Shown: piece after piece, positions 5,664 through 64,000 of the stretch
How positions within the stretch are numbered: position 1 is the stretch's first letter
How the letters are laid out: each line of letters starts with the position of its first letter
Assembly: GCA_017624855.1 (NCBI GenBank)
Contig: JAGAMF010000009.1
Span: forward strand, 179,423 to 243,422
Origin: Lachnospiraceae bacterium
Lineage (GTDB): Bacteria; Bacillota; Clostridia; Lachnospirales; Lachnospiraceae
DNA length: 64,000 nt
Reading direction: 5' to 3'
Program-made: the position numbers and the translations under genes
The notes under the pieces: model-generated
What the model was told of the DNA's origin: nothing
What the model saw: only the letters and a program-made list of their open reading frames with translations
The model's database searches: none

Positions 5664-5690
5664 TTTTATAAAAGAGAAATGAGGATTTTT

Positions 5691-7361: not shown

Positions 7362-7412
7362 TTTTGAATTGGTTATATATCATAATTTTATAATAACAAT
7401 GGAGGAGATACG

Positions 7413-8258: not shown

Positions 8259-8302
8259 TACATAAAATGTAGCGTGTATTTGTTTTTAGAACGGAGAAGT
8301 TT

Positions 8303-9955: not shown

Positions 9956-9986
9956 GGCGGTTAAAGAAATATAAGGAGGATAAAAA

Positions 9987-10874: not shown

Positions 10875-12259
10875 TGGGTGTATTGGAAAAAGTACCTGTA
10901 AGAGAACAGGATCCGGCAGTCAGAGCCACTAATTTTGAAGAAGTATGTTTGGGATATAACAAAGAAGAAGCTATGGAAGAGGCTTCCAGATGTATCGGTT
11001 GTAAAAATGCAGCTTGCGTTAAAGGTTGTCCCGTATCCATTGATATTCCCGGATTTATTGGTCAGGTAAAAGAAGGAAATATCGAAGAAGCATATAAAAT
11101 TATCAGTGAAGCAAGCTCACTTCCTGCGGTATGCGGTCGAGTATGTCCTCAGGAAAGTCAGTGTGAAGGCAAGTGTATTCGCGGATTAAAAGGCGATCCG
11201 ATTTCTATCGGTAAATTAGAGCGTTTTGTGGCGGATTGGGCATTTGAGAATGATGTTCATCCCGAACCTCCCAAGGAGAAAAACGGCAAAAAAGTTGCAG
11301 TAATCGGTTCCGGCCCTGCGGGTGTTACCTGCGCAGGTGACTTGGCGAAATTAGGCTATGATGTAACCGTATTTGAAGCATTACATGAATTGGGCGGCGT
11401 GCTTGTATATGGTATTCCTGAATTCCGTCTTCCTAAGGAAAGAGTAGTTCGTAAGGAAATTGAGAATGTTAAAAGACTTGGTGTTAAATTTGAAACCAAT
11501 GTTGTTATCGGTAAGTCAGTTACGATTGACCGCTTAATGGAAGATGAAGGTTTTGAAGCTGTATTTATCGGTTCCGGCGCAGGATTGCCTAAGTTTATGG
11601 GCATTCCCGGAGAAAATGCTAACGGTGTATTCTCAGCAAATGAATATTTGACCAGAAGTAACTTGATGAAGGCATTCCGTGAAGAGTCTAAAACACCTAT
11701 TATGCGTGGTAAGAAAGTTGCTGTTGTCGGTGGTGGTAATGTAGCAATGGATGCTGCAAGAACTGCATTGAGATTAGGTGCAGAAGTACATATTGTATAT
11801 CGTCGTAGTGAAGCAGAACTTCCTGCCAGAGTGGAAGAAGTACATCATGCAAAAGAAGAAGGTATTATTTTCGATCTTCTTACCAATCCCGTTGAAATTC
11901 TTGCGGATGAAAACGGCTGGGTTTGTGGCATTAAATGTATTAAGATGGAACTTGGCGAACCGGATGCATCAGGCAGAAGACGCCCTGTGGAAGTTGCAGG
12001 CAGTGAATTTGTGATCGATGTTGACGCTGTTATCATGTCCCTTGGTACATCTCCCAATCCTTTGATTTCTTCTACCACAGAAGGTCTTGAAGTTAATAAG
12101 TGGAAATGTATCGTTGCAGAAGAAGACAATGGTAAAACCACTAAGGAAGGCGTATATGCCGGCGGTGACGCAGTAACCGGTGCGGCAACCGTAATTTTAG
12201 CTATGGGTGCAGGTCGCGCAGGTGCAAAGGGTATTCATGAATATCTTTCCGATAAATAA
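10874..12259 (+). CDS. nfnB: NADH-dependent ferredoxin:NADP+ oxidoreductase, large subunit
   Basis: A 461-residue GltD-like flavoprotein, the bifurcating-FAD and NADPH subunit of Nfn. The N-terminus carries the two [4Fe-4S] cysteine sets (CIGCKNAACVKGCP and CGRVCPQESQCEGKC). FAD and NADPH Rossmann motifs follow: VIGSGPAGVTCAGDLAKLGY and VVGGGNVAMDAARTALRLG. The C-terminal flavin motif is YAGGDAVTGAATVILAMGAGR. It overlaps nfnA by one base and ends in a terminator. Stand-alone GltD-like proteins look similar; direct fusion to nfnA in the operon makes Nfn much the likelier role. Confidence 0.92.
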   Translation: MGVLEKVPVREQDPAVRATNFEEVCLGYNKEEAMEEASRCIGCKNAACVKGCPVSIDIPGFIGQVKEGNIEEAYKIISEASSLPAVCGRVCPQESQCEGKCIRGLKGDPISIGKLERFVADWAFENDVHPEPPKEKNGKKVAVIGSGPAGVTCAGDLAKLGYDVTVFEALHELGGVLVYGIPEFRLPKERVVRKEIENVKRLGVKFETNVVIGKSVTIDRLMEDEGFEAVFIGSGAGLPKFMGIPGENANGVFSANEYLTRSNLMKAFREESKTPIMRGKKVAVVGGGNVAMDAARTALRLGAEVHIVYRRSEAELPARVEEVHHAKEEGIIFDLLTNPVEILADENGWVCGIKCIKMELGEPDASGRRRPVEVAGSEFVIDVDAVIMSLGTSPNPLISSTTEGLEVNKWKCIVAEEDNGKTTKEGVYAGGDAVTGAATVILAMGAGRAGAKGIHEYLSDK

Positions 12260-12295
12260 GTTATTATAATTCTTTAAAAATAGTTAAGCTTTTAT

Positions 12296-12331
12296 AAGGA
12301 GATGTGCATATAGTGCATGTCTCCTTTTCTT
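12296..12331 (+). terminator. Intrinsic terminator after nfnAB
   Basis: A 13-pair stem (two G-U) with a short loop, followed by a T-rich run (TTTTCTTTTT). Confidence 0.75.
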
Positions 12332-12417
12332 TTTCACAAAAATATGTTATGATAAAACATAGTGAAAAAGTATGCTGTATAAAAAATACAGATACAATAA
12401 AAGAGAGGTAACAGACT

Positions 12418-13275
12418 ATGGCATGGTGTCCCAACTGTAAAACAGAATATAGAGACGGAATTGAGAAGTGCGCCGATTGCGGCAGCATTTTGGTAAAAAG
12501 TTTAAATGAAGAGGAGCGGACTGAGGAATCCTGCTCACTTTTATTTGGTGATGAAAAACATGTTCGTATGATTGAAGAACATTTAAAAGCAGAAGGTTTT
12601 ACTTCAGCATTTTCCGTTCGTAGAAAAAACAGCGAAAATGAAGGCGGTGAACAGGGTAAACATTTTGAACTGTTTATTGCGGCATCGGAAAGAGAAGCTG
12701 CTGTAAAATGTGCGGCTGAGTTTATGCGTAGTACCAATCCTCAAGCAGAGGAGGCGATTCAGAATCCTAATAGCCACCGCGTAATGACTGCGAAAGCAGA
12801 ACCTGTGCAGGAATTTGTTACTGCAAAAGAAAAGCAGAGTGATATGAAATCCAGCGGTATTATGCTTTTGATTTTTGGTGTTGCAGGCCTGGCATTTATG
12901 TTTTTGGTTATGTTCGGAGTGATTCCCCTTCGTTTTTCTGGATTTAATGCTGTAATTGCATATTCCGTAATGGGACTTTTCTTTGGCGTTTTATTTATTT
13001 CCGGTATTATGTCTCTTGTAAAAGCAAAGAAGATGACCGGTGTTGGTGAAGAAGAACAGAAGAAGTTGGATGATTTAAAAGAATGGTGTGACAAGAATCT
13101 TAGCAAGGAAAGTATTTTGGAAAGAATCCCCGGAGATGTTTCCGAAGACGAGCAGCTTTATTTTGCAAGATTTGATTATATGAAGGGAACCTTACAGGCG
13201 GCTTTTCCCGACTTAATGGATGATTTCCTTGAATATTATACCGAACAGCTTTACAGCGATTATTTTGAATCATAA
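12418..13275 (+). CDS. Zinc-ribbon two-TM membrane protein
   Basis: I do not recognise a precise family. The 285 residues begin with a zinc ribbon (WCPNC and CADC pairs). Residues about 40-105 resemble the DUF2007-type signal-transducing fold (LLFGDEKHVRMIEEHLKAEGF). Two transmembrane segments follow at about 143-163 and 178-198. The acidic C-terminal domain has DEQLYFARFDYMKGTLQAAFPDLMDDFLEYYTEQLYSDYF. AGAGAGG precedes the start. It is followed 13 bases later by rlmH. An extended -10 (TGTTATGAT at 12345-12353) may be its promoter, with no good -35. Confidence 0.75.
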   Translation: MAWCPNCKTEYRDGIEKCADCGSILVKSLNEEERTEESCSLLFGDEKHVRMIEEHLKAEGFTSAFSVRRKNSENEGGEQGKHFELFIAASEREAAVKCAAEFMRSTNPQAEEAIQNPNSHRVMTAKAEPVQEFVTAKEKQSDMKSSGIMLLIFGVAGLAFMFLVMFGVIPLRFSGFNAVIAYSVMGLFFGVLFISGIMSLVKAKKMTGVGEEEQKKLDDLKEWCDKNLSKESILERIPGDVSEDEQLYFARFDYMKGTLQAAFPDLMDDFLEYYTEQLYSDYFES

Positions 13276-13288
13276 AAGGAGTATTTCG

Positions 13289-13768
13289 TTGAATATCACA
13301 TTAGTAACCGTTGGCAAGATTAAAGAGAAATTTTATAGGGATGCGGTTGATGAGTTTGTGAAGCGTTTAAGTCGTTATTGTAAAATTCGCATTGTGGAGG
13401 TGGCTGACGAAAACACACCCAACAATGCGCCGGAGGCCATTGAAGAGCAGATTAAAAACAAAGAAGGGGAACGCATATTAAAGAATATTACGGATTCCAT
13501 GCATGTAATTGCCCTTGCAATTGAAGGAAAAGAGATGTCTTCGGTTAAATTTGCGGATAAAATTCAGCGCTTTGGTATTGAAGGCACTTCTGATATTTGT
13601 TTTGTAATCGGTGGTTCTTTAGGCTTGTCAAAGGCGGTATATGACAGGGCGGATGAACTTTTGAGTTTTTCGCCCATGACTTTTCCGCATCAGTTGATGC
13701 GTGTTGTTCTTTTGGAGCAGGTGTATCGGTGCTTCCGGATTATTCATAACGAGCCTTATCATAAATGA
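13289..13768 (+). CDS. rlmH: 23S rRNA pseudouridine-1915 N3-methyltransferase RlmH
   Basis: Methylates pseudouridine 1915 in helix 69 of 23S rRNA. I choose the TTG at 13289: it has AAAGGAG 7 bases upstream and gives 159 residues starting MNITLVTVGKIKEKF, the standard RlmH length and N-terminus; the longer frame upstream overlaps the previous gene. The SPOUT knot is clear in FVIGGSLGLSKAVYDRAD and the C-terminal signature MTFPHQLMRVVLLEQVYRCF...NEPYHK. The gene is normal in length and context. Confidence 0.95.
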   Translation: MNITLVTVGKIKEKFYRDAVDEFVKRLSRYCKIRIVEVADENTPNNAPEAIEEQIKNKEGERILKNITDSMHVIALAIEGKEMSSVKFADKIQRFGIEGTSDICFVIGGSLGLSKAVYDRADELLSFSPMTFPHQLMRVVLLEQVYRCFRIIHNEPYHK

Positions 13769-13851
13769 TTTATGACAGAGCTGTGTAAGATGATTTTATC
13801 AATCAATTAAATGGTGGCAAAATATTCATAATGACCTGGGGAGGTGTTTTT

Positions 13852-15156
13852 ATGAGAATGTATGATATTATCATGAAAAAAAGAAATAAAGGAGCCCTGA
13901 GTAAGGAAGAGATTGATTTTCTGATAGAAGGTTATACCAAGGGAGAGATTCCCGACTATCAGATGTCAGCCCTTACCATGGCTATTTTTTTTAATAAAAT
14001 GACTGCGGAGGAGACCCTTCATCTTACCATGGCAATGGCCAACAGCGGTGATATGCTTGATTTGTCTGCTATAAAAGGCGTAAAAGTTGATAAGCATTCT
14101 ACCGGCGGTGTAGGAGACAAAACATCTCTGGCTTTGATTCCCATGGTTGCTGCGGTAGGCGTACCTACGGCGAAAATGAGTGGTCGCGGTCTTGGACATA
14201 CCGGCGGCACCATTGACAAATTAGAGTCTTTTACCGGTTTTCATACAGATATATCTACGGAACATTTTGTCAATCAGGTAAATCGTATCGGTATTTCCAT
14301 TATGGGACAGACTGCGGATTTGGCACCTGCGGATAAAAAGCTGTATGCATTGCGCGATGTTACCGCTACTGTAGACAATATGTCTCTGATTGCCAGCTCT
14401 ATCATGAGCAAGAAACTGGCGGCGGGAGCGGATGCCATTGTGTTGGATGTAAAAACCGGTAGCGGAGCTTTTATGAAGAAAGAAGAGGATTCCTTTGCCC
14501 TTGCCCGTGAAATGGTAACGATCGGTAACGGTGCGGGACGCAGAACCATTGCGGTTATTTCTGATATGGATCAGCCTCTGGGCTATGCGGTGGGAAATGC
14601 CTTAGAGGTAAAAGAAGCCATTGATACTTTAAATGGAGCAGGACCGGCGGATTTTAGAGAATTATGCCTTACATTAGGTTCCTATATGGTGGTTGCAGCC
14701 GGAAAAGCAGCTAACAAAGAAGAAGCAAGAGAAAAGCTTATAGAAGTAATCGAAAACGGAAAAGCGTTGGCAAAATTGGCTGAATTTATCGAAGCGCAAG
14801 GCGGAACGAAAGAGGAAGTATATCATCCGGAGCTTTTACCCAAAGCGCAGTATGTGCAGGAAATCCTTTCGGAGGAAGAAGGTTATATTTCGGCTATTGT
14901 ATGTGATGAAATCGGTATTTGTTCCTTGATTTTAGGCGGCGGTCGAGAAACCAAGGAGAGCGAAATTGATTTGTCCGTAGGTTTGGTTCTTCATAAGAAG
15001 AAGGGCGATTATGTTAAGAAGAGCGAAAGCCTTGCTACAATACATGCCAATGATTTAGAGAAGCTGGAAGTTGCAAAGAAGCGTTTCCTTGCCGCTTATA
15101 CTTTTACAACAAAGGAATTTGAGGCTGAGCCTTTGATTCGCGGCATTGTAGAGTAA
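13852..15156 (+). CDS. pdp: Pyrimidine-nucleoside phosphorylase
   Basis: Reversible phosphorolysis of uridine and thymidine to base plus (deoxy)ribose-1-phosphate; pyrimidine salvage in the cytosol. The ATG at 13852 gives 434 residues, the family length, after a GGGGAGGTG site; the ATG at 13831 lies upstream of that site. Signature motifs are [31 protein letters not shown] (phosphate binding) and [10 protein letters not shown]. The C-terminal domain [13 protein letters not shown]...[16 protein letters not shown] is the lipoyl-like PYNP_C module. A strong terminator closes the gene. Confidence 0.95.
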
Positions 15157-15182
15157 AAGAGTTGATTATATAAAATAAAATG

Positions 15183-15225
15183 AAGCACCCGATTGTCTTT
15201 AAATAAAAGATAATCAGGTGCTTTT
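15183..15225. terminator. Terminator shared by convergent pdp and the TIR gene
   Basis: A long stem, arms starting AAGCACC and ending GGTGCTT with one mismatch and one G-U inside, then TTTTAT. It sits between convergent genes and may serve both. Confidence 0.8.
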
Positions 15226-15231
15226 ATATGC

Positions 15232-16569
15232 TTATTTATTGTTTGTATCGGGGAGTTTGGTTAAATCTACCACAATTGCAGGGCGTATGCCAAAACCTTC
15301 CGTGCCTACATTGGCTGTAATGCACTGATTCTGCGTATGGCCGTTATCTACAAGGTAGCACTGAGAGGAAGTTCCTTCTACCGGTTCTCTTAACCACCAG
15401 TAATAGTTGCTCACATTGTATTCATCAAGCTGAATGTCATACCAGTTACTTTCATCCTGTGCCAAGGAAACCGTTGTAGGCTCAGCATAAATGCTCATGC
15501 CGGCTTCTTGGAACCACTGCAATTCCTCTTTGGATAAAAGGAAAACATAGTCATTGGTTATAACGGTTTCATTCTCTGACAAGGCATTTCCTGTAGTTTT
15601 AATTTCCTGTTGAATTAAAGTCTCAAGTTCCTCTTCTGTAAAATGATACAAAAATCCGGGCTCGGTATGATAAGCGTTATATTTTTCGGACATGGCATCG
15701 GCAAGAGGCGGTTGATCCTGATAGGTAACAACCTCCAAAGAGGAGTTTAGCCAGGTTCGAATGTTTGAATTGCTCCAATCATTGTTGCCTCTTACTTGAA
15801 CCTGTAAATGCAAATCCGTATCCGCTGCGCTATTTCGTGACCAGTAATCCTGTGTGCCGTCATGATTAAAAGTGCCGCCTTCCGCTGCATCGTAGGCTTT
15901 CATGGTTAAAATATCCGAAGAAATCAAAACTGCCTCGGTACCATCGTCTGAAAGCTTTAATACACGCCATTCAATGGGCATATTGTTGTAGCTTCCCAAT
16001 GTAATGGTATCACCGGTTTGATAAGATATTCGGTTATTGAATCCTTTATTTATAAAAAGTACAAAAATCAAAACAATAAGTAAGGCCAATAATGTAATAA
16101 CGGATGGTATCAACAGCTTGCGCTTTGAAGTCTTTTCAATACTTCTTGTCACCGGTTCGGTATTGCCTGCGTGGTTTTCTGTATTGTTTTCGTATTTTTG
16201 TATAAAAGCAAGAATTTCGGAATAATCTCTTTTTTTCTCGCTTGTAATCCATTGGTGGGTCATAAGAAAATATTCCATGGATTTGGATAATTCCACATCT
16301 TCCAATTTATAAACCAAAATAGGAATGGAACGGCTGACAGCCCGTTCTACCTCACGAAGTACATGAGGGGATTTGTTGGCGTTTTCCGACATGATGAGAA
16401 TCATGGCATCCGCTCTTTGGATTCCGTGTATGATTTCTTCTGCATATTCCTTGCCGGGATGAATATCTCTCGGTGCAATGAAGCACTCTGCACCGTTATT
16501 TTCAATATAGGTGCACATTTCGTTTGCAACAGAAGCATCGGCAGAAGAGTGCGAAATAAATAAGTACAT
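15232..16569 (-). CDS. TIR-domain, single-TM, DUF6273-type sensor protein
   Basis: The only minus-strand host gene. The 445 residues hold a TIR_2-type domain at 1-115 (MYLFISHSSAD, FIAPRDIHPGKEY, MILIMSENANKSPHVLREVERAV), a Ser/Thr/Lys linker, one transmembrane helix at 151-174, and an extracellular domain at about 185-440 of the DUF6273 kind (ITLGSYNNMPIEWRVL, SNIRTWLNS, YWWLREP). Glu73 in LREVE is in the place where TIR NADases carry their catalytic Glu. AAGGAG stands 6 bases before the ATG. This architecture would let an outside signal control a cytoplasmic TIR. Whether it is a defence NADase, a scaffold or a signalling receptor cannot be decided here. Confidence 0.82.
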   Translation of the reverse strand: MYLFISHSSADASVANEMCTYIENNGAECFIAPRDIHPGKEYAEEIIHGIQRADAMILIMSENANKSPHVLREVERAVSRSIPILVYKLEDVELSKSMEYFLMTHQWITSEKKRDYSEILAFIQKYENNTENHAGNTEPVTRSIEKTSKRKLLIPSVITLLALLIVLIFVLFINKGFNNRISYQTGDTITLGSYNNMPIEWRVLKLSDDGTEAVLISSDILTMKAYDAAEGGTFNHDGTQDYWSRNSAADTDLHLQVQVRGNNDWSNSNIRTWLNSSLEVVTYQDQPPLADAMSEKYNAYHTEPGFLYHFTEEELETLIQQEIKTTGNALSENETVITNDYVFLLSKEELQWFQEAGMSIYAEPTTVSLAQDESNWYDIQLDEYNVSNYYWWLREPVEGTSSQCYLVDNGHTQNQCITANVGTEGFGIRPAIVVDLTKLPDTNNK

Positions 16570-16746
16570 GTTCTGCTCCTTAATATATATAGCATAGTAA
16601 AATGCTTATTTTATAATTTATGTCCGTGAAATATCTTACACTATTTTTATTAAAATGAAAAGTTATATCATTTTGAACATTTCGTGAAAAATGCTTTCGA
16701 AAAGTATTTTGTTCATAAGATATCGAAAAAAAGCATAGAATTAACT

Positions 16747-56665: not shown

Positions 56666-57577
56666 ATGGAAAAAATGTTCTTTCAGGTTCCCCAGGAGAT
56701 GGAGGGAGAACGACTGGATGTCTTTATCAATGAGTGGATTGATACCGTATCCAGAAGTTATCTTCAAAAATTAATAAAAGATGGTCAGGTCACCATTAAC
56801 GGTAAGGTTGTGAAACCCAGTTTTGATGTAAAGACGGATGATGAAGTTGTAGTATGCCTTCCTGAGGCCGTAGAGCCTGAAATTAAGGCCGAAAACATTC
56901 CGCTTGACATTTTATACGAAGATAAGGATGTTTTGGTTGTAAATAAGCCTAAGGGAATGGTGGTTCATCCCGCAGCGGGACATTATGAGGGAACGCTTGT
57001 AAATGCATTGATGTATCATTGTAAAGATGATTTATCCGGCATTAACGGAGTAATGCGTCCGGGCATTGTGCATCGAATCGATCGTGACACTACCGGTTCC
57101 TTGATTATTTGTAAAAATGACTTTGCTCATCACTCTATTGCAGAACAGTTAAAAGAGCATTCTATTAAAAGAGTTTATAAAGCTATTATTACCGGCAATT
57201 TTCCGGAATCGGAAGGAACGATTAACGCACCCATCGGTCGTCATCCGGTGGAGCGAAAGAAAATGGCTGTTGTTCCCAACGGAAGAGAGGCAATTACACA
57301 TTATAAAATTTTACAACCTTTAAAAGGTTATGCATATGCTCAGTTTCAGCTTGAAACCGGAAGAACACATCAAATTCGTGTTCATATGGCAAGTAAGGGA
57401 CATCCTCTTTTGGGTGATACGGTTTATGGTAGCGGCAAAGATCCTTATCATACCAACGGGCAGGTTTTGCATGCTCAGACCCTGGGATTCATACATCCCA
57501 GAACAGGAGAATATATTGAAGTAAACGCTCCTTTGCCGGAATATTTTGAAAAACTATTAGTAAAGTTAGAGGTATAA
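56666..57577 (+). CDS. rluD: RluD-family 23S rRNA pseudouridine synthase
   Basis: Makes pseudouridines in the 1911/1915/1917 helix of 23S rRNA (the substrate region of RlmH). The ATG at 56666 has GGAG 6 bases upstream; 303 residues. An N-terminal S4 domain (RLDVFINEWIDTVSRSYLQKLIKDGQVTINGK) is followed by the catalytic HRIDRDTTGSLIICKN with Asp139, and by LETGRTHQIRVHMASKGHPLLGD. RluA-group specificity between RluC and RluD is not fully certain; the S4 domain and length favour RluD. Confidence 0.9.
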   Translation: MEKMFFQVPQEMEGERLDVFINEWIDTVSRSYLQKLIKDGQVTINGKVVKPSFDVKTDDEVVVCLPEAVEPEIKAENIPLDILYEDKDVLVVNKPKGMVVHPAAGHYEGTLVNALMYHCKDDLSGINGVMRPGIVHRIDRDTTGSLIICKNDFAHHSIAEQLKEHSIKRVYKAIITGNFPESEGTINAPIGRHPVERKKMAVVPNGREAITHYKILQPLKGYAYAQFQLETGRTHQIRVHMASKGHPLLGDTVYGSGKDPYHTNGQVLHAQTLGFIHPRTGEYIEVNAPLPEYFEKLLVKLEV

Positions 57578-57593
57578 AAATGGGTTTTCTTGA

Positions 57594-57872
57594 GTAAGAT
57601 GTCCCAATTATCTTGGCGAAGTTCTTTTTTGGACCGGAGTTTTTGTTTCGGGAATTAGTATTTATGCAAGTGTGTGGCAGTGGATTTCGGCTGCATTTGG
57701 CTATATTTGTATTGTTTATATTATGTTTGGCGGCGCCAGACGCTTGGAATTACGGCAAAATCGAAATTATGGAGACGATCCTGAGTATCAGGCATATGTT
57801 AAGAAGACTCCGATATTAATTCCATTAATTCCGTTGTACAGTGTTGCAAAGCATAAATGGCTTGTTGGATAA
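57594..57872 (+). pseudogene. DUF1295/isoprenylcysteine-methyltransferase-like gene remnant
   Basis: An open frame of 92 codons with no start codon: it begins after TGA (57591-57593) with VRCPNYLGEVLFWTGVFVSG and continues to YQAYVKKTPILIPLIPL and a stop at 57870-57872. CPNYLGE...W.G and the Arg/Tyr-rich ending are the C-terminal part of DUF1295/steroid-reductase-like membrane proteins. The N-terminal two thirds are missing; rluD lies 16 bases upstream. AGAGG followed by ATG at 57580 opens only a 5-codon frame. The remnant is unbroken, so loss may be recent. Confidence 0.65.
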
Positions 57873-57876
57873 TAAT

Positions 57877-57924
57877 AAAAAGTAATTTAAGTTTTCTGAT
57901 TCGATACTTTAATTACTTTTTTCT
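57877..57924. terminator. Terminator after the remnant gene
   Basis: AAAAAGTAATTTAAG pairs with CTTTAATTACTTTTTT (one mismatch) across a 15-base loop; T-run follows. It reads as terminator on either strand. Confidence 0.7.
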
Positions 57925-57946
57925 TTTATATATCTATAAAAAACAG

Positions 57947-57975
57947 TCGAAATCATAGTACTTTTATGGTATAAT
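57947..57975 (+). promoter_or_regulatory. Predicted promoter of the cytidylate-kinase-like gene
   Basis: TCGAAA (57947-57952), 17-base spacer, TATAAT (57970-57975) with TGG immediately before (extended -10), 39 bases before the start codon. Confidence 0.65.
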
Positions 57976-58013
57976 TTTAGTAGGGTTACAAAATAATAGG
58001 GGGAGATTATAAT

Positions 58014-58637
58014 ATGAAAAATAATCTGATTATTACAATTGGAAGACAATATGGTTCCGGTGGTCATGAAATAGGAGAGAAGCTTGCAAAAGCATATGAT
58101 ATTCCCTGCTATGACAAAGAATTGCTGGCAAGAGCAGCCAAGGAAAGTGGTTTTTGCGAGGAAATGATTAAAAATCATGATGAAAGACCTACAAATTCTT
58201 TTCTTTATAATCTGGTTATGGATACATATTCTATGGGTTATTCAACAGGTGCCTATGTTGATATGCCTATTGGACAGCGTGTTTTTCTTGCTCAGTTTGA
58301 TACAATTAAGGAAGTGGCAAAAGAGGGCTCGTGTGTAATCGTTGGTCGATGCGCCGATTATGCGTTAAGTGAATGTGCAAATTGCATTAATATCTTCATT
58401 TATGCAGATATGGATGTCCGTATTAAGCGTATTATGGAAAAATATAATCTTTCCGAGAAAGAGGCCAAGGATTCTATTGTAAAGAAGGATAAACAGCGTG
58501 CAAGCTATTATAACTATTATTCCAATAAAAAGTGGGGCCAGGCATCTTCTTATAATTTATCTGTTGATAGTGGTGTTCTTGGAATTGACGGTACGGTTGA
58601 ATTGATTAAAACTTTTATTGATTTAATCGGAAAATAA
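58014..58637 (+). CDS. Cytidylate-kinase-like P-loop protein
   Basis: A 207-residue protein of the cytidylate-kinase-like family (AAA_26). ITIGRQYGSGGHEIGEKLAKAYDIPCYDKELL is the P-loop and CMP-kinase-like start; VIVGRCADYAL, a YADMDVRIKRIMEKYNLSEKEAKDSIVKKDKQRASYYNYYSNKKWG lid region follow. The family is widespread in Clostridia with no proven substrate, and true CMP kinase (cmk) is usually encoded separately. A GGGGGAG ribosome site and a good promoter suggest independent expression. It is the last host gene before the prophage. Confidence 0.88.
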   Translation: MKNNLIITIGRQYGSGGHEIGEKLAKAYDIPCYDKELLARAAKESGFCEEMIKNHDERPTNSFLYNLVMDTYSMGYSTGAYVDMPIGQRVFLAQFDTIKEVAKEGSCVIVGRCADYALSECANCINIFIYADMDVRIKRIMEKYNLSEKEAKDSIVKKDKQRASYYNYYSNKKWGQASSYNLSVDSGVLGIDGTVELIKTFIDLIGK

Positions 58638-58666
58638 ATTTATGGATTAAATTTTAGATTAAAAAG

Positions 58667-58700
58667 GGGACCGGAATATAAAAACGGTCCCTTAATTGTT
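58667..58700. terminator. Bidirectional terminator between host gene and prophage
   Basis: GGGACCG/CGGTCCC stem, with TTAATTGTTT to the right on the plus strand and CCTTTTT on the minus strand. It could stop transcripts leaving the prophage leftward. Confidence 0.75.
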
Positions 58701-58789
58701 TGTGCAGGTATAAAAACATATAAATTTTCTATTTAAATATAAATTAAGCAGAGGAAAAAACGAGTTAAGAGAGTGATTTTATAGAGACG

Positions 58790-58816
58790 CAACTCTTCGC
58801 AAAACACAACTTTAAC
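58790..58816. repeat. Left 27-base direct repeat (attL-like)
   Basis: Starts CAACTCTTCGC and ends ACAACTTTAAC; 26 of 27 bases equal the copy at 63974-64000 (A/T difference at position 12). Homology stops sharply on the left. On the minus strand it contains a TAAAGT -10 element. Confidence 0.85.
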
Positions 58817-58838
58817 ACACATCATATATACTTGTCAA
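58809..58838 (-). promoter_or_regulatory. Predicted phage promoter spanning the left repeat
   Basis: On the minus strand TTGACA (58838-58833), 18-base spacer ending in TGT, and TAAAGT (58814-58809) as an extended -10 inside the repeat. It points out of the prophage; in the circular form it would run through the repeat into rep. Confidence 0.5.
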
Positions 58839-58866
58839 TACTTATTTTGAAAAAAGAGTAGAAGTA

Positions 58867-58942
58867 CCGCATTTTATATTCTATTTTCGCTTGAAAAAAG
58901 TTTGCAGCACTCCGTTTTCACTTAATAGTCTATAAAATGCGG
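58867..58942. repeat. 12-base inverted repeat, phage non-coding region
   Basis: CCGCATTTTATA (58867-58878) and TATAAAATGCGG (58931-58942), perfect, 52 bases apart. Confidence 0.7.
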
Positions 58943-58974
58943 AAAATATCAGAACAAAAAGCCATACACAATAC

Positions 58975-59009
58975 ACACACTCCGCTAAGTCGTAGTAAGC
59001 GGAGTGTGT
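58975..59009 (-). other. Predicted double-strand origin (Rep nick hairpin)
   Basis: A perfect 12-bp stem, ACACACTCCGCT (58975-58986) with AGCGGAGTGTGT (58998-59009), and an 11-base loop. The loop on the minus strand reads TACTACGACTT, containing TACTACGAC, the nick sequence of pMV158-family Rep proteins (cut between G and A, here 58991/58990). The rep gene of this element is of that family. Confidence 0.75.
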
Positions 59010-59021
59010 ACAAGGGGTAAA

Positions 59022-59060
59022 TAAGAGGTTAAGTAAATCGTTGTTTTACTTAACCTCTTA
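59022..59060. repeat. 16-bp perfect hairpin, phage non-coding region
   Basis: TAAGAGGTTAAGTAAA (59022-59037), 7-base loop, exact complement 59045-59060. It may be a packaging signal, minus-strand origin or terminator. Confidence 0.7.
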
Positions 59061-59081
59061 ATATATGGTTTTTATTATTGA

Positions 59082-59144
59082 TTATGTCAATGGTTGCCCT
59101 ACGGCGTATCGAGTGGCAGATGCCACTCTTGCCCATTGACATAA
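59082..59144. repeat. Nested hairpin, phage non-coding region
   Basis: Outer 12-bp stem TTATGTCAATGG (59082-59093) with 59133-59144; inside it GAGTGGC/GCCACTC (59111-59117, 59122-59128). It ends 3 bases from the stop of the last phage gene and, read leftward, could also terminate it. Confidence 0.7.
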
Positions 59145-59146
59145 GC

Positions 59147-59464
59147 CTAGTTTTTTTTATATATGAAGCCTTTTATAACTGTATTGTTTAAAGTAGAGTA
59201 TATTGGAATAAATACACCATAGGGAGTAATATATGTGTTTGTTTCTTCGTCATAATATTTTTTATAAATAAAAACACATCCATTACAAGCAAAATGTTCT
59301 TTACCCTCAAAGCTAACTTTCAGTTCTTGCGGATACTTAAAAAATCGGGCAATTTTCCACAAAGTAGAACATAAAATAAAAGTGGGTAACAAATAAATAA
59401 TAATAGCAACAATAATACAAATAATAGTAGTAGTACCACCATACAATAATAAATCGTTAAACAT
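59147..59464 (-). CDS. Small phage membrane protein (105 residues)
   Basis: Unknown. The ATG at 59464 has AAAGGAG 6 bases upstream (a host-type site, unlike other phage genes); the frame extends 17 codons further without a site. A long hydrophobic segment (about 10-37) is followed by a Lys/Tyr-rich domain with CNGCVFIYKKYYDEETNTYITPYGVFIP. It is the last gene, separated from zot by a terminator, and may have its own expression. Candidates are a superinfection-exclusion or minor virion protein; no evidence decides. Confidence 0.75.
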   Translation of the reverse strand: MFNDLLLYGGTTTIICIIVAIIIYLLPTFILCSTLWKIARFFKYPQELKVSFEGKEHFACNGCVFIYKKYYDEETNTYITPYGVFIPIYSTLNNTVIKGFIYKKN

Positions 59465-59496
59465 AAAGAACTCCTTTCTTTTTTTCAGTATAAAAT

Positions 59497-59533
59497 AAAA
59501 AGCACTTCTGGGCAAGCCATGAAGTGCTTTTTT
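59497..59533 (-). terminator. Terminator after zot
   Basis: AAAAAGCACTTC (59497-59508) pairs with GAAGTGCTTTTT (59521-59532); 12-base loop; T-run on both strands. It closes the zot transcript. Confidence 0.8.
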
Positions 59534-59536
59534 CTT

Positions 59537-60439
59537 TTATGCTGATTTTTTAATTTTTGAAAACCTTTTTTTCTTCTTCTTTTCTTCCGGTACTTCAATA
59601 TTAAGAGAAGAGTTACACTGCAAATCAAGAATTTCTTTATCACTGAGCATATCGCCAGTTTCCCAAGATTTTACAAGCTGACCGACCACCGCAAGAGTGT
59701 TATAGTTGGCATAATCTTTATTGTGAACAAAGAAACCAGTTCTATATAACGGTCTGATTTTAGTAATATCATTTGTATTTTCAAGTTCATATGCATCATA
59801 TACATACTGCCTTTGTAAGCGCCAAACTTTGTTACACTCAATAACTTCTTGTGTCACTTGACGAATCAATGCATCAACATGGCCGAACCGCTGAGCAGTA
59901 CCAACGATAGACATATGATAATGACGGCAACAAAGAATCGTATTCAATAACTGACCGTTAATATTCTTCTTAAATTCCCTTGAATTAAGCTGCACAGACA
60001 TCTCATCAATTAAGGCAATAGTAATAGTGAGAGTATCATTAAGCTTGTCAACTTCGGCATTATTTTCAGCACATTTAACAAGCTGTTCCAAAGAAACAAG
60101 CTTTTCATAAGGGATACCTGTCAAATCAACATTAGATAGCACTTTAACCTTTTGGGTAACAAATTTCTTTCTATCTTCGCACCATACTTTTTTATTATTA
60201 TACCGCTTATAATAACTAACTACTTCATGTACCGCTGAGAGTGTTTTGCCTTTTCCGAATAAGCCAGTAAAGATTTTTAACTTACCCGTAGGGGCTTTGT
60301 TTTTTTCGGAATATTTAAAATAATGATATATATCAATAACACCATTTCATACAACAAAGGGAAAGTTATTGATTACCAAACGCGCATTAAGGCTAAAAAT
60401 ATAAATCAATACAAATGCAAGGACAAATAACCATATCAT
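59537..60439 (-). CDS. Zot/pI morphogenesis ATPase with in-frame TGA
   Basis: Assembly motor that extrudes filamentous virions. Read through one stop it gives about 300 codons: an N-terminal helix (MIWLFVLAFVLIYIFSLNAR), TGA at codon 31 (60349-60347), Walker A GLFGKGKT (59-66), Walker B IALIDE (Asp145), the Zot-like CRHYHMSIVGTAQRF and TQEVIECNKVW, and a Lys-rich tail. AAGGGGG lies 8 bases before the ATG. After the TGA there is no ATG, GTG or TTG before Walker A. A TGG (Trp) to TGA change is the simplest history; readthrough or a sequencing error are alternatives. If real, assembly is probably lost. Confidence 0.75.
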
Positions 60440-60451
60440 ATTAATACCCCC

Positions 60452-60592
60452 TTATCTCTTAGCAACATACATCAGAATGGCACCAAGAGAAAATACACCT
60501 TCCAATACTGCAAAGACAAAAAGAAGTCTTATAAAAACTTCGGGTGTCCAAGTAGTAGCACCATTCATAATAAATTCAACAATATTATCCAT
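60452..60592 (-). CDS. 46-residue phage membrane peptide
   Basis: MDNIVEFIMNGATTWTPEVF followed by a hydrophobic helix (IRLLFVFAVLEGVFSLGAILMYV) and AKR. AGGTGG stands 6 bases before the ATG; it begins 7 bases after the previous gene and ends 12 before zot. The size and one-helix form recall pVII/pIX minor coat proteins, but no sequence match is claimed. Confidence 0.7.
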   Translation of the reverse strand: MDNIVEFIMNGATTWTPEVFIRLLFVFAVLEGVFSLGAILMYVAKR

Positions 60593-60599
60593 ATTCCAC

Positions 60600-60923
60600 C
60601 TACTTTCCCATAGATCTAATAGAATCCAAAAAATGAACTATGTATGTTTTAAATAAAATAAACAACAGTACAATAAAAATAAAAGTGAGCATATCATAAT
60701 TAGACTGCAATAAACTATTCTGTGTCTGAATTTCTGCAAGTAATTCATCAGATACAACTTCGGAATAAATAACAACCTCTTCCGTGATTTCTTCGGAAGT
60801 AGTAGTACTTTCTTCTTCCGTGATTTCTTCGGAAGTAGTAGTACTTTCTTCTTCCGTGGTTTCTTCGGAAGTAGTAGTACCACCACTTAAATATTCTAAA
60901 TCTTTATTTAACGATTCACTCAT
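60600..60923 (-). CDS. 107-residue phage protein with acidic repeats and TM
   Basis: Residues about 15-50 are three 12-residue repeats of the form TTTSEE.TEEES, encoded by 36-base tandem repeats. A helical region and one transmembrane segment (about 81-98) follow, ending HFLDSIRSMGK. AGGGGGTG precedes the ATG. Layout (outside acidic stalk, anchored C-terminus) suggests a minor virion or membrane-assembly protein. Unknown family. Confidence 0.75.
   Translation of the reverse strand: MSESLNKDLEYLSGGTTTSEETTEEESTTTSEEITEEESTTTSEEITEEVVIYSEVVSDELLAEIQTQNSLLQSNYDMLTFIFIVLLFILFKTYIVHFLDSIRSMGK
60781..60880. repeat. 36-base tandem repeat (about 2.8 copies)
   Basis: Units begin at 60781, 60817 and 60853 (TCCGTGATTTCTTCGG...), nearly identical; in frame, so they can expand or contract by 12 residues without breaking the gene. 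Confidence 0.85.
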
Positions 60924-60934
60924 GCAAGCACCCC

Positions 60935-61147
60935 CTATTTACGAATCACAATAGAATAATCATTAACTAAATCATGTAAAACATTCATATAAGGGCATTC
61001 AACTTCAGCAATGCTTAAAGCTTCCCAAACGCCTACAATACCGGCTATTTCTTTAAAACTCTTAAATCCACTAGGGGCTACAAGAACCGCATGAGGACAA
61101 AAACAACAATTAACTTTACTCTGACATTCTTCTTTTGTCATTATCAT
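60935..61147 (-). CDS. 70-residue Cys-rich phage protein
   Basis: MIMTKEECQSKVNCCFCPHAVLVAPSG... has four Cys near the N-terminus (8, 14, 15, 17) and one at about 51, with no clear transmembrane segment. A run of seven G is the ribosome site. It could bind metal, but the spacing matches no zinc motif I know. Function unknown. Confidence 0.7.
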   Translation of the reverse strand: MIMTKEECQSKVNCCFCPHAVLVAPSGFKSFKEIAGIVGVWEALSIAEVECPYMNVLHDLVNDYSIVIRK

Positions 61148-61159
61148 ATAAAACCCCCC

Positions 61160-61339
61160 CTAATCATCAGTATACCAAGCAAAAAGAGCATTAATAAATC
61201 CCCATAATATAGAGCCAAGAAGAACAAATAACATAACTTCCCACATAGTGAAAGAAACTCCATAAATATTAAAAGATATATTCATTGCATTGTAAGCAAA
61301 ATCTATACAAACCTTAAAAAAATTAAGAATTTCATACAT
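61160..61339 (-). CDS. 59-residue phage membrane peptide
   Basis: MYEILNFFKVCIDFAYNAMN, then a membrane helix (about 32-55; TMWEVMLFVLLGSILWGFIN) and an acidic end YTDD. The ATG at 61339 follows GGGGGTG by 7 bases and starts 13 bases after the adsorption gene. It is a possible minor coat or pVI-like protein. Confidence 0.7.
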   Translation of the reverse strand: MYEILNFFKVCIDFAYNAMNISFNIYGVSFTMWEVMLFVLLGSILWGFINALFAWYTDD

Positions 61340-61352
61340 ACAAGAACACCCC

Positions 61353-62795
61353 CTAGCCCTTAATAACTTTTATTACTCCAACAATTACCATAACGGCAAT
61401 ACCAAGCCACAACATAGATTGAATTTCAACCGGAATAAAGCCGAATACAGTAGCAAATAATGTAGCAAAGTTCCCCATAGACAAATCAATATTATTAATT
61501 GTTGCTCGAATATAAGAAAAAAGCTCATTTGGATTATTAAGGTTGATATATTCAGCATTGTTAGAATATGAAATATTACCGCTAGTATCTTGTTTACCAT
61601 TTTCGGTAGGGGTTTCTATGATATCGCCGTTGTTATTCTGAAAAATGCCACTTTTAACAACATTTCCGTCAGAAAAATATGTATAACTTGCCCAAGGCCC
61701 ATAGTGCCAACCGCTAGAATCATCAAAGTAAAAAAATCTTACCTTATACTGCGTATAGGCATTTGGTATATCATAGGGAGTAATTTTTGCTAATTCAGAA
61801 GCGGAAACTTTTGTATTATGATTAAAAAATACAGCTTGTTTACCAAAAGGTAACCCCCAAATATTATATAACTCTGAAGCTTTCCAAACTCTATCAACCC
61901 CTTTTGTATAATCATAACATGACGGATAAGTTGTATAGAAAGAGTTGATAGAAGATAGAAGAGCAGTATTATTATCAACAGAATACATCATATTTAAGTC
62001 AACAACGGAATTATGATAATATGCTTCGCTATTTTCATTAATCAAACCAAAATTATTGACAAATAACGCATCTGATATATTATGTGTTCCGTCAACATAA
62101 TTTGCAGGAGTTTCTATACCGCTTTGCATATAGATTTCAAGTAAGAATCTAGCGTCAGTATCAATATTATCTACTGTGAATCCCTCATGCGTAATATTAG
62201 AAAGCACAGGAAGAACAATATCAGAATCATTAATTTCCAAATCCTCAAAAGGACTAACCCAATTTCCATTATTCCATACTTTGTTATAGTTTACTGCATT
62301 TTCAATACCTAAATCGCCGTTACGATATGAAATAGCATCTTCATAACTTGAAAAAATTGGAAGATTAGTTAAAAAATAAACATCTGAACAACTTTCATAA
62401 ATAGAAGTATCCATGTACTTAATCGGTTGAACATTAACACAACTTTGATTAGTATACTCTGTACCATCAGATTTTAAATCTTTATAAAGAATCTCAGTTC
62501 CAGCGGGAGTACCAATTTCACAAAGTTTTTGTCCGGTAGAAGATAAAGAGTAGGGCTCATAATATAAACACATCATTTTATTAGATTCAGTAATAGTAGT
62601 GCGCATATCCATAGCCCAATGATACTCCGTACCGCGATAAATATATGTAATTTCGCAAGTATAATAAACATCATCACCAACTTCAAAAACACTATCTAAA
62701 TAGTTTTTTTCTTCTTCCGAAGTTTCAGCATTAGCAAAAATCGAAAAAGAAAGAGTAAAAATAAGAATAAAGCACAATAATATATATTTTTTCAA
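61353..62795 (-). CDS. Putative adsorption protein (pIII-like)
   Basis: A 480-residue secreted, C-terminally anchored protein. The TTG at 62795 has AAAGGAG 7 bases upstream and begins a signal peptide (MKKYILLCFILIFTLSFSIF, then ANA-ET as likely cleavage); the frame further upstream overlaps a terminator. The mature part is rich in Asn, Tyr, Ser and Asp. Near the end come NNIDLSMGNFATLFATVFGF and a hydrophobic helix (about 452-478) with Lys tail, the pIII arrangement that ends virion assembly. Position after coat and before zot fits the receptor-binding tip protein. No homology is claimed. Confidence 0.72.
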   Translation of the reverse strand: MKKYILLCFILIFTLSFSIFANAETSEEEKNYLDSVFEVGDDVYYTCEITYIYRGTEYHWAMDMRTTITESNKMMCLYYEPYSLSSTGQKLCEIGTPAGTEILYKDLKSDGTEYTNQSCVNVQPIKYMDTSIYESCSDVYFLTNLPIFSSYEDAISYRNGDLGIENAVNYNKVWNNGNWVSPFEDLEINDSDIVLPVLSNITHEGFTVDNIDTDARFLLEIYMQSGIETPANYVDGTHNISDALFVNNFGLINENSEAYYHNSVVDLNMMYSVDNNTALLSSINSFYTTYPSCYDYTKGVDRVWKASELYNIWGLPFGKQAVFFNHNTKVSASELAKITPYDIPNAYTQYKVRFFYFDDSSGWHYGPWASYTYFSDGNVVKSGIFQNNNGDIIETPTENGKQDTSGNISYSNNAEYINLNNPNELFSYIRATINNIDLSMGNFATLFATVFGFIPVEIQSMLWLGIAVMVIVGVIKVIKG

Positions 62796-62820
62796 ATCAA
62801 CATCTCCTTTCAAAAGTAAA

Positions 62821-62845
62821 AGGGGAGTGAACGAGCCACTCCCCA
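62821..62845 (-). terminator. Terminator between coat and adsorption genes
   Basis: GGGGAGTG/CACTCCCC stem (62822-62829, 62837-62844), 7-base loop; read leftward it is followed by TTTTACTTTT. It lies where M13 has its central terminator, after the major coat gene. Confidence 0.75.
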
Positions 62846-62852
62846 AAAACTA

Positions 62853-63059
62853 CTATCTGCGTGCGGAGCGCTTTGCCATACGGAAGATACCGAAGCCAAT
62901 ACCGACCAGTGAAGCAACAAGGAATACATTTAAAGGAAACTCAGTAAATAATCCCATAGTTGTTTTACACAAGTCAATTAACTCAGTAACGATAGCTTTA
63001 TCAATCTGTGTTGTACCCGAAGTTGCCACAAGGCTAAGTAAATATGTATAATTCATCAT
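62853..63059 (-). CDS. Putative major coat protein (pVIII-like)
   Basis: A 68-residue protein: an amphipathic N-terminal part (residues about 18-40), one transmembrane helix at about 42-61 (FPLNVFLVASLVGIGFGIF) and a basic tail MAKRSARR that could contact the phage DNA. AAAGGGGG lies 9 bases upstream. There is no obvious cleavable signal peptide, though residues 1-15 are hydrophobic. It is immediately followed by a terminator, which would raise its transcript level over downstream genes. Confidence 0.75.
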   Translation of the reverse strand: MMNYTYLLSLVATSGTTQIDKAIVTELIDLCKTTMGLFTEFPLNVFLVASLVGIGFGIFRMAKRSARR

Positions 63060-63062
63060 ATT

Positions 63063-63305
63063 TTATTTTCCCCCTTTCGTAATAGTAATATGTTCAATGC
63101 GGAACTTATTACCATAGCCAGTAGGCTCGTAGCATACATCCGCAAAAGAACCAAGAGCAAGATTTTCGATACCGATAATGCGGTCTTTTGTGGCTGCGAC
63201 TTCTTTAACTGCATTACCATTAATACCGTATTTTGCATATGTACCATGGATTTCAATCCATTCACTTTTATCTGAAACTTTAAAACCTAAAACATTAATT
63301 TTCAT
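63063..63305 (-). CDS. Putative ssDNA-binding protein (pV position)
   Basis: 80 residues, predicted mostly beta strand (MKINVLGFKVSDKSEWIEIHGTYAKYG... FRIEHITITKGGK). GGAGAG precedes the ATG; it overlaps the end of rep by 11 bases. Location between rep and coat, size and strand-rich character fit the ssDNA-binding protein of filamentous phages, but no motif proves it. Confidence 0.55.
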   Translation of the reverse strand: MKINVLGFKVSDKSEWIEIHGTYAKYGINGNAVKEVAATKDRIIGIENLALGSFADVCYEPTGYGNKFRIEHITITKGGK

Positions 63306-63918
63306 TTTTTAATCTCTCCTTATAATTGATATAATCGTTATGTTCACCTAACATCATATTAAAAATAGCACCGGCACGACGATATACATCCCAATAACCA
63401 TTAGATGCACAATATGTCGCAAAATTAGTCACTGAAAGAGTAATAGAAGAAGTAGTTATATAACTAATCAAATCACATACTTTTTCGTTTTCGTCTTTAT
63501 CGCGAGAATTTATAATTTTTTTTAAAGAAACACAAAGACTTCCAAAAACTTCCGAAATATCATATTGATATTTGTCCTCATGGTCAAAATGAACAAGATA
63601 TGCCAAAGCACCATTTAAGTTACAACCGCGAACAAATCTTTCTTCAATTCCAAGTTCATCCGCTACATTATCCCAAAAGCGAGAATTTTTAAATTGAACA
63701 ACCGCGTGATAGTGAGGCTTCTTAAAATCCATATCTTCATCATCAATATAAATATCTTTACTATGTGTATCTTTATCATGTAAAATATAAGCAACAGACG
63801 AATAAGATTTAAGAATATCTAATGCTTTCATATGTTCCGCATTATCAGCCCAAAACAAAATCATAAAATTACGATTAAATTGTAGCTTATTATTGCGGTT
63901 ACGCGCGTCACTCATCAT
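63295..63918 (-). CDS. rep: pMV158-type HUH replication initiator
   Basis: A 207-residue Rep of the Rep_2/pMV158 group. All key residues of that active site are seen: His47 and Asp50 in LHDKD, His69 and His71 in KPHYHAVVQF, and Tyr107 in GALAYLVH, with the KYQYD that follows in this family. It nicks the plus origin and starts rolling-circle replication. The ATG at 63918 has no good ribosome site; a 14-codon leader frame with a strong site overlaps it. The C-terminal part (about 130-207) has no oligomerisation domain I can name. Confidence 0.85.
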   Translation of the reverse strand: MMSDARNRNNKLQFNRNFMILFWADNAEHMKALDILKSYSSVAYILHDKDTHSKDIYIDDEDMDFKKPHYHAVVQFKNSRFWDNVADELGIEERFVRGCNLNGALAYLVHFDHEDKYQYDISEVFGSLCVSLKKIINSRDKDENEKVCDLISYITTSSITLSVTNFATYCASNGYWDVYRRAGAIFNMMLGEHNDYINYKERLKNEN

Positions 63919-63952
63919 AACGCATGAATAATATTCTAAAAGAGTAGTACAT
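63908..63952 (-). CDS. 14-residue leader peptide upstream of rep
   Basis: ATG at 63952 after a seven-G ribosome site, reading MYYSFRILFMRYDE, stop TGA at 63910-63908, overlapping the rep start by 11 bases in another frame. It probably feeds ribosomes to rep. Confidence 0.45.
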   Translation of the reverse strand: MYYSFRILFMRYDE

Positions 63953-63973
63953 GCTTACACCCCCCCTTCTCTT

Positions 63974-64000
63974 CAACTCTTCGCTAAACACAACTTTAAC
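63974..64000. repeat. Right 27-base direct repeat (attR-like), at window edge
   Basis: One mismatch to 58790-58816. Because the window ends at 64,000 the repeat may be longer. rep starts 55 bases to its left. Confidence 0.8.

What the first reader, a model, noticed from the sequence alone, without database searches (positions are those of the whole stretch)
58790..64000. Complete inovirus-like prophage of a Gram-positive host
Seen: ten or so leftward genes in filamentous-phage order (HUH rep, small protein, one-TM coat with basic tail, terminator, signal-peptide/C-anchor protein, small membrane proteins, Zot ATPase), flanked by near-identical direct repeats 5,184 bases apart. Known: filamentous phages have this order and a pI/Zot ATPase; secretin pIV serves the outer membrane. 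Inferred: this is a small filamentous prophage of a Clostridia host that exports virions without a secretin. Such elements are easily missed because the genes are tiny.
Basis: partly seen in the sequence, partly recalled or inferred. Interest (0 to 1): 0.9.

Follow-up and report, generated by a model that had tools for sequence, protein, structure and literature searches.

The report
Filamentous prophage parked at dif site
A small filamentous-phage-like prophage of a probably Gram-positive bacterium sits at the place where the host normally untangles its chromosome, apparently borrowing the host's recombination enzyme to get in, and its export gene carries a stop codon.

Summary
Window 58790-64000 carries ten small leftward genes in inovirus order, bounded by 27-nt repeats (26/27 identical) 5,184 bases apart; the contig ends inside the right repeat. 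The initiator matches Pfam Rep_OBD (2.8e-13); the Zot/pI-type ATPase is 49-58% identical to its closer relatives in viral contigs, a human-faecal phage record and a second element of the same genome.

Two corrections. First, "complete" is doubtful: an in-frame TGA (60347-60349) separates the Zot membrane segment from its ATPase domain. Second, the repeats are the host's dif-like site. Fourteen of 30 congeners carry one clear copy; in one, the cumulative GC-skew peak lies 41 bases past it, and a XerS-like recombinase gene lies near.

Of eleven elements compared (grouped after the fact), the five without their own integrase sit at this site, four of them with a XerS-like gene seen nearby (the window's assembly lacks that stretch). 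Of the other six, five have an integrase beside a tRNA and one a transposase. So this looks like an integrative element exploiting Xer of a XerS-like kind. Nine library searches listed no such report for inoviruses; Gram-positive inoviruses themselves are known. Verdict: new variant of a known kind.

The parts
58790..58816 (.). attL: left direct repeat, dif-like site; left flank is chromosome
   Evidence: 58772-58819 matches the empty site of congener G306, 81% over 48 bases, E 1.8e-6; shown side by side
63974..64000 (.). attR (part): right direct repeat, cut by contig end
63295..63918 (-). replication initiator, rolling-circle type
   Evidence: Pfam Rep_OBD PF01719 2.8e-13, over cut-off; 39.8% to rep of circular bajarodino virus 66
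63063..63305 (-). 80-aa protein in the place of a ssDNA-binding protein (role inferred from position only)
   Evidence: no family match of note
62853..63059 (-). probable major coat protein, one hydrophobic segment, basic C end
   Evidence: 67% to L012 and 55% to L005 homologues; hydropathy
62822..62844 (-). terminator-like stem-loop after coat gene
   Evidence: consensus match only
61353..62795 (-). 480-aa protein with hydrophobic N end (signal-peptide-like) and C end, pIII-like position
   Evidence: 54% to L012 homologue; hydropathy; no Pfam match
61160..61339 (-). 59-aa membrane protein
   Evidence: 57% to L012 homologue
60935..61147 (-). 70-aa protein, unassigned; no homologue found in L012
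60600..60923 (-). 107-aa membrane protein with 36-base tandem repeats
   Evidence: 32% to L012 homologue; repeats
60452..60592 (-). 46-aa membrane protein
   Evidence: 71% to L012 homologue
60347..60439 (-). Zot/pI N-terminal membrane segment, ends at in-frame TGA 60347-60349
59537..60346 (-). Zot/pI ATPase domain, same frame after the TGA; first ATG/GTG/TTG in this frame (60142) lies past the Walker A motif
   Evidence: PHROG 1675 2.8e-4; Pfam Zot 0.002, below cut-off; 58% to L012 and L005; start codons
59147..59464 (-). 105-aa membrane protein
   Evidence: 35% to L012 homologue
59083..59143 (-). long hairpin after last gene; candidate packaging signal (inferred from position)
58975..59009 (-). 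hairpin with TACTACGAC in its loop; candidate rolling-circle nick site (pMV158 motif recalled)
58809..58838 (-). promoter-like TTGACA-18-TAAAGT whose -10 lies in att; in the circle it would read into rep
   Evidence: consensus match only, not above shuffle count

Best explanation
An inovirus-like prophage that replicates by rolling circle (PF01719-type initiator), would be exported by a Zot/pI ATPase without a secretin, and entered the chromosome at the host's dif-like site by recombination between a dif-like site on the phage and the chromosomal one, using a host Xer recombinase, most likely the XerS-like enzyme encoded near this site in relatives. Shown: gene content, repeats, likeness of the repeat and its left flank to the empty, terminus-linked site of congeners, absence of a phage integrase. 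Inferred: the recombinase used, excision, export. As read, the Zot frame is broken by a TGA, so this copy is probably impaired in export unless the function is supplied from elsewhere (the second element of the same genome has an open Zot frame) or the stop is an error or is read through.
For: Families. Relatives with the same genes. Empty sites: congeners G303 and G306 have the same kinase gene (Cytidylate_kin2), one copy of the motif, then AI-2E-like transporter, ttcA, XerS-like gene, LysM and lexA genes (the names ttcA, LysM and lexA are by eye). Motif with at most 1 mismatch once in 14 of 30 congeners (backward-read control 2 hits in 31 genomes); 12 of these 14 have kinase before and transporter after it within 1.5 kb. 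In G325 the cumulative GC-skew maximum (473865) lies 41 bases past the motif (473799-473824) within 350,989 bases examined. Integrase-less elements in G013, G054, G362, G368 also lie at a dif-like site near a XerS-like gene; elements with their own integrase (PF00589 over cut-off) lie by tRNAs. 5 of 5 against 0 of 6, Fisher 0.002 (grouping made after seeing the data). XerS is the best NCBIfam model for 6 of 6 recombinases tested, all below its cut-off.
Against: The window's own assembly (74.5% complete) lacks the xerS and transporter stretch (best matches 29% and 31%) and the right junction is cut. XerD over the family cut-off is present in G000 and four congeners, and just below it in G013 and G368, so a two-recombinase reaction is not excluded; only in G054 was the XerS-like gene the sole match at 1e-15 (8 genomes searched). 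16 of 30 congeners, including the complete G120, show no clear motif. In G362 and G368 only one element end was seen; in G013 the element is split over two contigs and interrupted by a stretch with a large serine recombinase (PF00239), which I take for a later insertion. Pfam Zot is below its cut-off for this protein, and Pox_A32 scores about as well; of 12 aligned members 5 match Zot and 5 match Pox_A32 at 0.01. The phage right arm makes attL less symmetric (6 of 14) than nine congener sites (7-12 of 14).
Confidence: 0.8

Rival explanations
1. Same phage, but integration is done by XerD with another Xer partner, the XerS-like gene being only a neighbour or one of two partners.
For: XerD over the family cut-off in G000 and four congeners.
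Against: In G054 (96% complete) the XerS-like gene was the only match at 1e-15, and its element ends about 70 bp from it; known single-recombinase systems of the XerS and XerH kind have dif beside the gene (PMC5357621, PMC9765430, passages).
Confidence: 0.25
2. Degenerate remnant: the prophage no longer makes particles and the repeats only record one old insertion.
For: In-frame TGA in Zot.
Against: The other nine frames are open; purine-rich stretches precede nine of the ten genes by eye, rep being the exception; the two repeats are still 26/27 identical.
Confidence: 0.35
3. Integrated plasmid or mobilisable element, not a phage.
For: The initiator family is shared with small Gram-positive plasmids (107 plasmid records match, rows with most coverage at about 29% or less).
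Against: Zot/pI-type ATPase, coat-like and pIII-like genes shared with viral contigs; no relaxase among the ten proteins scanned.
Confidence: 0.03

Closest known systems
Enterocloster inoviruses (PMC10061712)
   Same: Gram-positive gut hosts, pI gene with 10-16 other genes, flanking direct repeats, secreted particles
   Different: 6.5-8.5 kb (one 16 kb); the main text does not hold the word Xer and the passages shown do not identify the repeats as dif (supplements not seen)
XerCD-dependent filamentous phages (CTXphi and others, PMC5357621 passages; XacF1, PMC5666396 abstract in a listing)
   Same: integrate at dif through host Xer
   Different: Gram-negative hosts, XerC/XerD; here a XerS-like gene lies by the site, which reads as 14-6-14
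LME-1 of Legionella (PMC9765430, passages)
   Same: integrative element exploiting a single-recombinase Xer system
   Different: XerL system in another phylum; not described as filamentous in the passages seen
Streptococcal XerS/difSL (PMC5357621, passages)
   Same: single Xer gene near its site
   Different: here XerS is best match only, below the model's cut-off; difSL is a 31-bp site with an 11-bp centre
Bajarodino virus 66 (PQ006102)
   Same: circular inovirus genome, rep 39.8% identical, TACTACGAC between inverted arms
   Different: Zot only 25% identical; of the window's eleven protein pieces only rep and Zot found matches there

Membership tests
Inoviridae-like phage | pI/Zot morphogenesis ATPase | tested here: met
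   PHROG 1675 2.8e-4; Pfam Zot 0.002, below cut-off; 49-58% to Zot frames of closer relatives; gene interrupted by TGA
Inoviridae-like phage | rolling-circle initiator | tested here: met
   PF01719 2.8e-13
Inoviridae-like phage | short one-helix coat protein | tested here: inconclusive
   68 aa, one hydrophobic segment, basic end, homologues in the same place; no family match, no structure prediction obtained
Inoviridae-like phage | filamentous virion with circular ssDNA | not testable with these tools
   needs culture
Integrative element exploiting Xer | insertion at chromosomal dif | tested here: met
   empty sites in congeners and GC-skew peak in one congener; right junction not seen
Integrative element exploiting Xer | no integrase of its own | tested here: met
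   no such frame or family match in 58790-64000
Integrative element exploiting Xer | recombination needs host Xer | not testable with these tools
   needs knockout
XerS/difSL system | recombinase scores over the XerS model cut-off | tested here: not met
   186-208 bits against 267 in 6 of 6 proteins; still the best family
XerS/difSL system | site beside the recombinase gene | tested here: inconclusive
   about 70 bp in G054, about 0.7 kb in G013 and G368, 2.6 kb in G303, 3.2 kb in G362, 7 kb in G325; not seen in G000

The most novel reading that the evidence does not exclude
A group of Gram-positive inoviruses in this family exploit a XerS-like, perhaps single-recombinase, dif system, a kind of Xer hijack I found no report of; and in the window's phage the att site splits the rep promoter, so that integration itself switches replication off and excision switches it on.
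Probability: 0.3. Interest if true: 0.75.

Novelty: new variant of a known kind. Interest (0 to 1): 0.58.

Why it matters
If true, it extends Xer hijacking by filamentous phages from Gram-negative XerCD systems to a XerS-like system, gives a sequence definition of the dif site in this host genus, and gives a simple rule (no integrase: look at dif) for finding tiny inoviruses that are easily missed.

Tried and rejected
Viral-contig scan with the single Zot sequence gave nothing; a 4-row alignment gave 18 loci. A 22-base core of the repeat has no exact match in viral contigs. D protein has no tblastn match among phage records. Rfam: nothing at the gathering score in 57500-64000. Solved structures: no match for the Zot profile or the rep. 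A CTXphi-like hairpin att was tested: a significant inverted partner of the site lies inside the element at 4 of 9 element ends (L016 right, L014, L108, L109), not at either end of the window's element (p 0.75 and 0.15), and the same test is significant (p 0.007 or less) beside 5 of 9 empty sites of congeners, so I do not claim it. Promoter-like sites are no more frequent than in shuffles (32 against a mean of 28.4), so the att-straddling promoter is only an idea; its -35 hexamer matches 6 of 6 on the phage side and at most 3 of 6 on the chromosomal side in two congeners. Structure prediction was asked for six times and not accepted because the machine was busy, so no fold evidence is offered. 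G155 (weak Zot match) was not examined. The viral-contig loci and phage records were left out of the 5-against-6 count because their host sites were not mapped; 8 of the 18 viral contigs carry a transposase like that of L017 and one (L039) a tyrosine recombinase. The second G368 copy (L109) was not counted apart.
Full report
What was checked. The window is contig C2, 179423-243422, of a 1.95-Mb, 74.5% complete assembly in 14 contigs, and the contig ends at window position 64000. The 27-nt repeat differs at one base between its two copies; a 22-base core of it occurs nowhere else in the assembly at up to 3 mismatches.

Genes. The initiator matches Pfam Rep_OBD at 2.8e-13, over its cut-off; its best phage record is the rep of bajarodino virus 66, a circular inovirus genome from rodent faeces (39.8%), and plasmids match at about 29% or less identity in the rows with most coverage. 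The ATPase piece matches PHROG families described as head morphogenesis (1.4e-5), M13 protein I (2.8e-4) and Zot-like (0.0014), and Pfam Zot at 0.002 (18.1 bits against a cut-off of 20.3) with Pox_A32 at 0.004. Of 12 aligned members 5 match Zot and 5 match Pox_A32 at 0.01. It is 58% identical to a Zot frame in contig C12 of the same genome, 58% to one in a Haloplasmataceae MAG (L005), 54% to one in a human-faecal phage record (L017), and 49-56% to fifteen aligned frames, fourteen of them from viral contigs; 18 viral contigs hold relatives. Two more distant ones in the family (L015, L016) are at 27-35%. No secretin, integrase or relaxase appeared among the ten proteins scanned. Coat, D, E, G, H, Zot and J have homologues in the same order in the C12 element; rep, B and F found none there.

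The stop. The frame from ATG 60439 meets TGA at 60347-60349, between the membrane segment and the Walker A motif; the profile search also counted one TGA inside the match. Of six relatives aligned, five cover this place and are open there; the sixth (L013) begins after it. TGA ends 3 of 42 long, non-overlapping window frames, so it is used as a stop in this genome. The prophage is therefore not demonstrably complete. Whether the stop is real or an error needs reads.

What the repeats are. In congeners G303 and G306 the kinase gene that precedes the left repeat is followed by one copy of the motif and then by an AI-2E-like transporter, ttcA, a XerS-like tyrosine recombinase, a LysM protein and lexA. 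Window 58772-58819 matches the G306 site at 81% over 48 bases (E 1.8e-6); the sequences part right after the repeat. In G303 the site has 5 mismatches to the window's 26-base core. The pattern AACTNTTCGCNAAANNNNANTTTAAC is found once in 14 of 30 congeners with at most one mismatch; one more (G308) has a two-mismatch hit on another contig that I take for chance; 15 have none, G120 (100% complete) among them; the backward-read control gave 2 hits in 31 genomes. Twelve of the 14 show kinase before and transporter after it in the 1.5-kb flanks; G300 and G325 do not, and in G325 the transporter, ttcA and XerS-like gene follow about 5-8 kb downstream. In G325 the cumulative GC skew over 350,989 bases peaks at 473865, 41 bases past the end of the motif; only this congener was tested so. 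In the window the skew is positive in all 12 five-kilobase steps up to 60000, as expected if the contig ends at the terminus. The site reads as two 14-base arms with a 6-base centre; arm symmetry is 7-12 of 14 in nine congener sites listed, where random window stretches reach 9 or more in 0.42% of cases; the window's attL, with a phage right arm, has 6.

Other elements. A profile search of 397 genomes of the family found matches in 10. I examined nine (G155 was left out), which hold ten counted elements, plus L005 from another collection: eleven. Without an integrase of their own: this one; G013 (split over two contigs, XerS-like gene and lexA on one side, a LysM gene on the other, Zot interrupted by a stretch with a large serine recombinase that I take for a later insertion); G054 (both ends seen, the right one about 70 bp before the XerS-like gene); G362 (one end, then a dtd-like gene by eye, transporter, ttcA and XerS-like gene); G368 (one end beside ttcA and the XerS-like gene; a second copy, 86-89% identical over its two longest matched stretches, lies on another contig with a dif-like site, and was not counted apart). 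With a tyrosine integrase (PF00589 over cut-off) beside a tRNA: G094, G373, G196 and L005, each with a direct copy of the tRNA's end at the far side, and the C12 element of this genome, where the tRNA-Gly end recurs only as an inverted 27-base copy and a direct 17-base one, so its att is not shown. G415 has a transposase with HTH_38 and rve domains, rve just below its cut-off (the name IS30 is recalled). Integrase-less at dif 5 of 5, others 0 of 6; Fisher 0.002, with groups made after seeing the data.

Which recombinase. For 6 of 6 recombinases tested XerS is the best NCBIfam model, at 186-208 bits against a cut-off of 267. So they are XerS-like, not certified XerS. XerD over its cut-off is present in G000 and four congeners and just under it in G013 and G368; in G054 the XerS-like gene was the only match at 1e-15. 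G000 itself lacks the xerS locus and the transporter in its incomplete assembly.

Non-coding end. The 330 bases 58817-59146 fold on the gene strand with z = -9.67, 0 of 100 shuffles as stable. One hairpin holds TACTACGAC in its loop; bajarodino virus 66 has the same motif between inverted arms. That this is the pMV158-type nick sequence is recalled. A longer hairpin after the last gene is a candidate packaging signal by position only.

Literature. PMC10061712 (abstract and passages) reports Enterocloster inoviruses with flanking direct repeats and secretion. The main text held of the large survey PMC6813254 (passages) does not contain a word beginning with Xer. PMC5357621 and PMC9765430 (passages) describe XerS, XerH and XerL single-recombinase systems and integrative elements exploiting Xer. 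PMC5666396 (abstract in the listing) puts phage XacF1 at dif through XerC/D. Nine searches (listings, several of them cut) showed me no report of an inovirus at a XerS-type dif in the library held, which lacks most subscription papers and preprints. That the host family is Lachnospiraceae is my guess; no call names it.

Noticed in passing
L012 (G000:C12:606000-625900), 3496-14638: Second inovirus-like element in the same genome, with open Zot frame and a tyrosine integrase (PF00589) beside tRNA-Gly; its 396-aa gene next to the integrase has no Pfam match at 0.01. The tRNA end recurs inverted at 14567-14593.
   Followed up: partly
L106 (G373), 14246-15301: Likely initiator of an inovirus-like element matches Viral_Rep (PF02407) and RNA_helicase (PF00910) over both cut-offs, a CRESS-type combination; two other relatives match PF23343 and one PF02486 weakly, so initiators seem to be exchanged among these phages.
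   Followed up: partly
L109 (G368:C5), 3436-3554 and 7626-7744: 119-nt stretch after Zot repeated without a difference at the contig end, with a Cro/C1-type gene and no second Zot match between: possible satellite or tandem array at dif.
   Followed up: partly
L014 8725-10924 and L013 5241-5960 (G013): Zot gene interrupted by a stretch with a large serine recombinase; the other half lies on another contig.
   Followed up: partly
L057, L059, L068, L070, L072 downstream of the motif: 5 of 9 empty dif sites tested have an inverted partial copy of the site within about 130 bases; meaning unknown.
   Followed up: partly
L012 14086-14502: Two copies of a roughly 226-base unit in tandem, beside a type I restriction-modification methylase gene at 15088-16686.
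   Followed up: no
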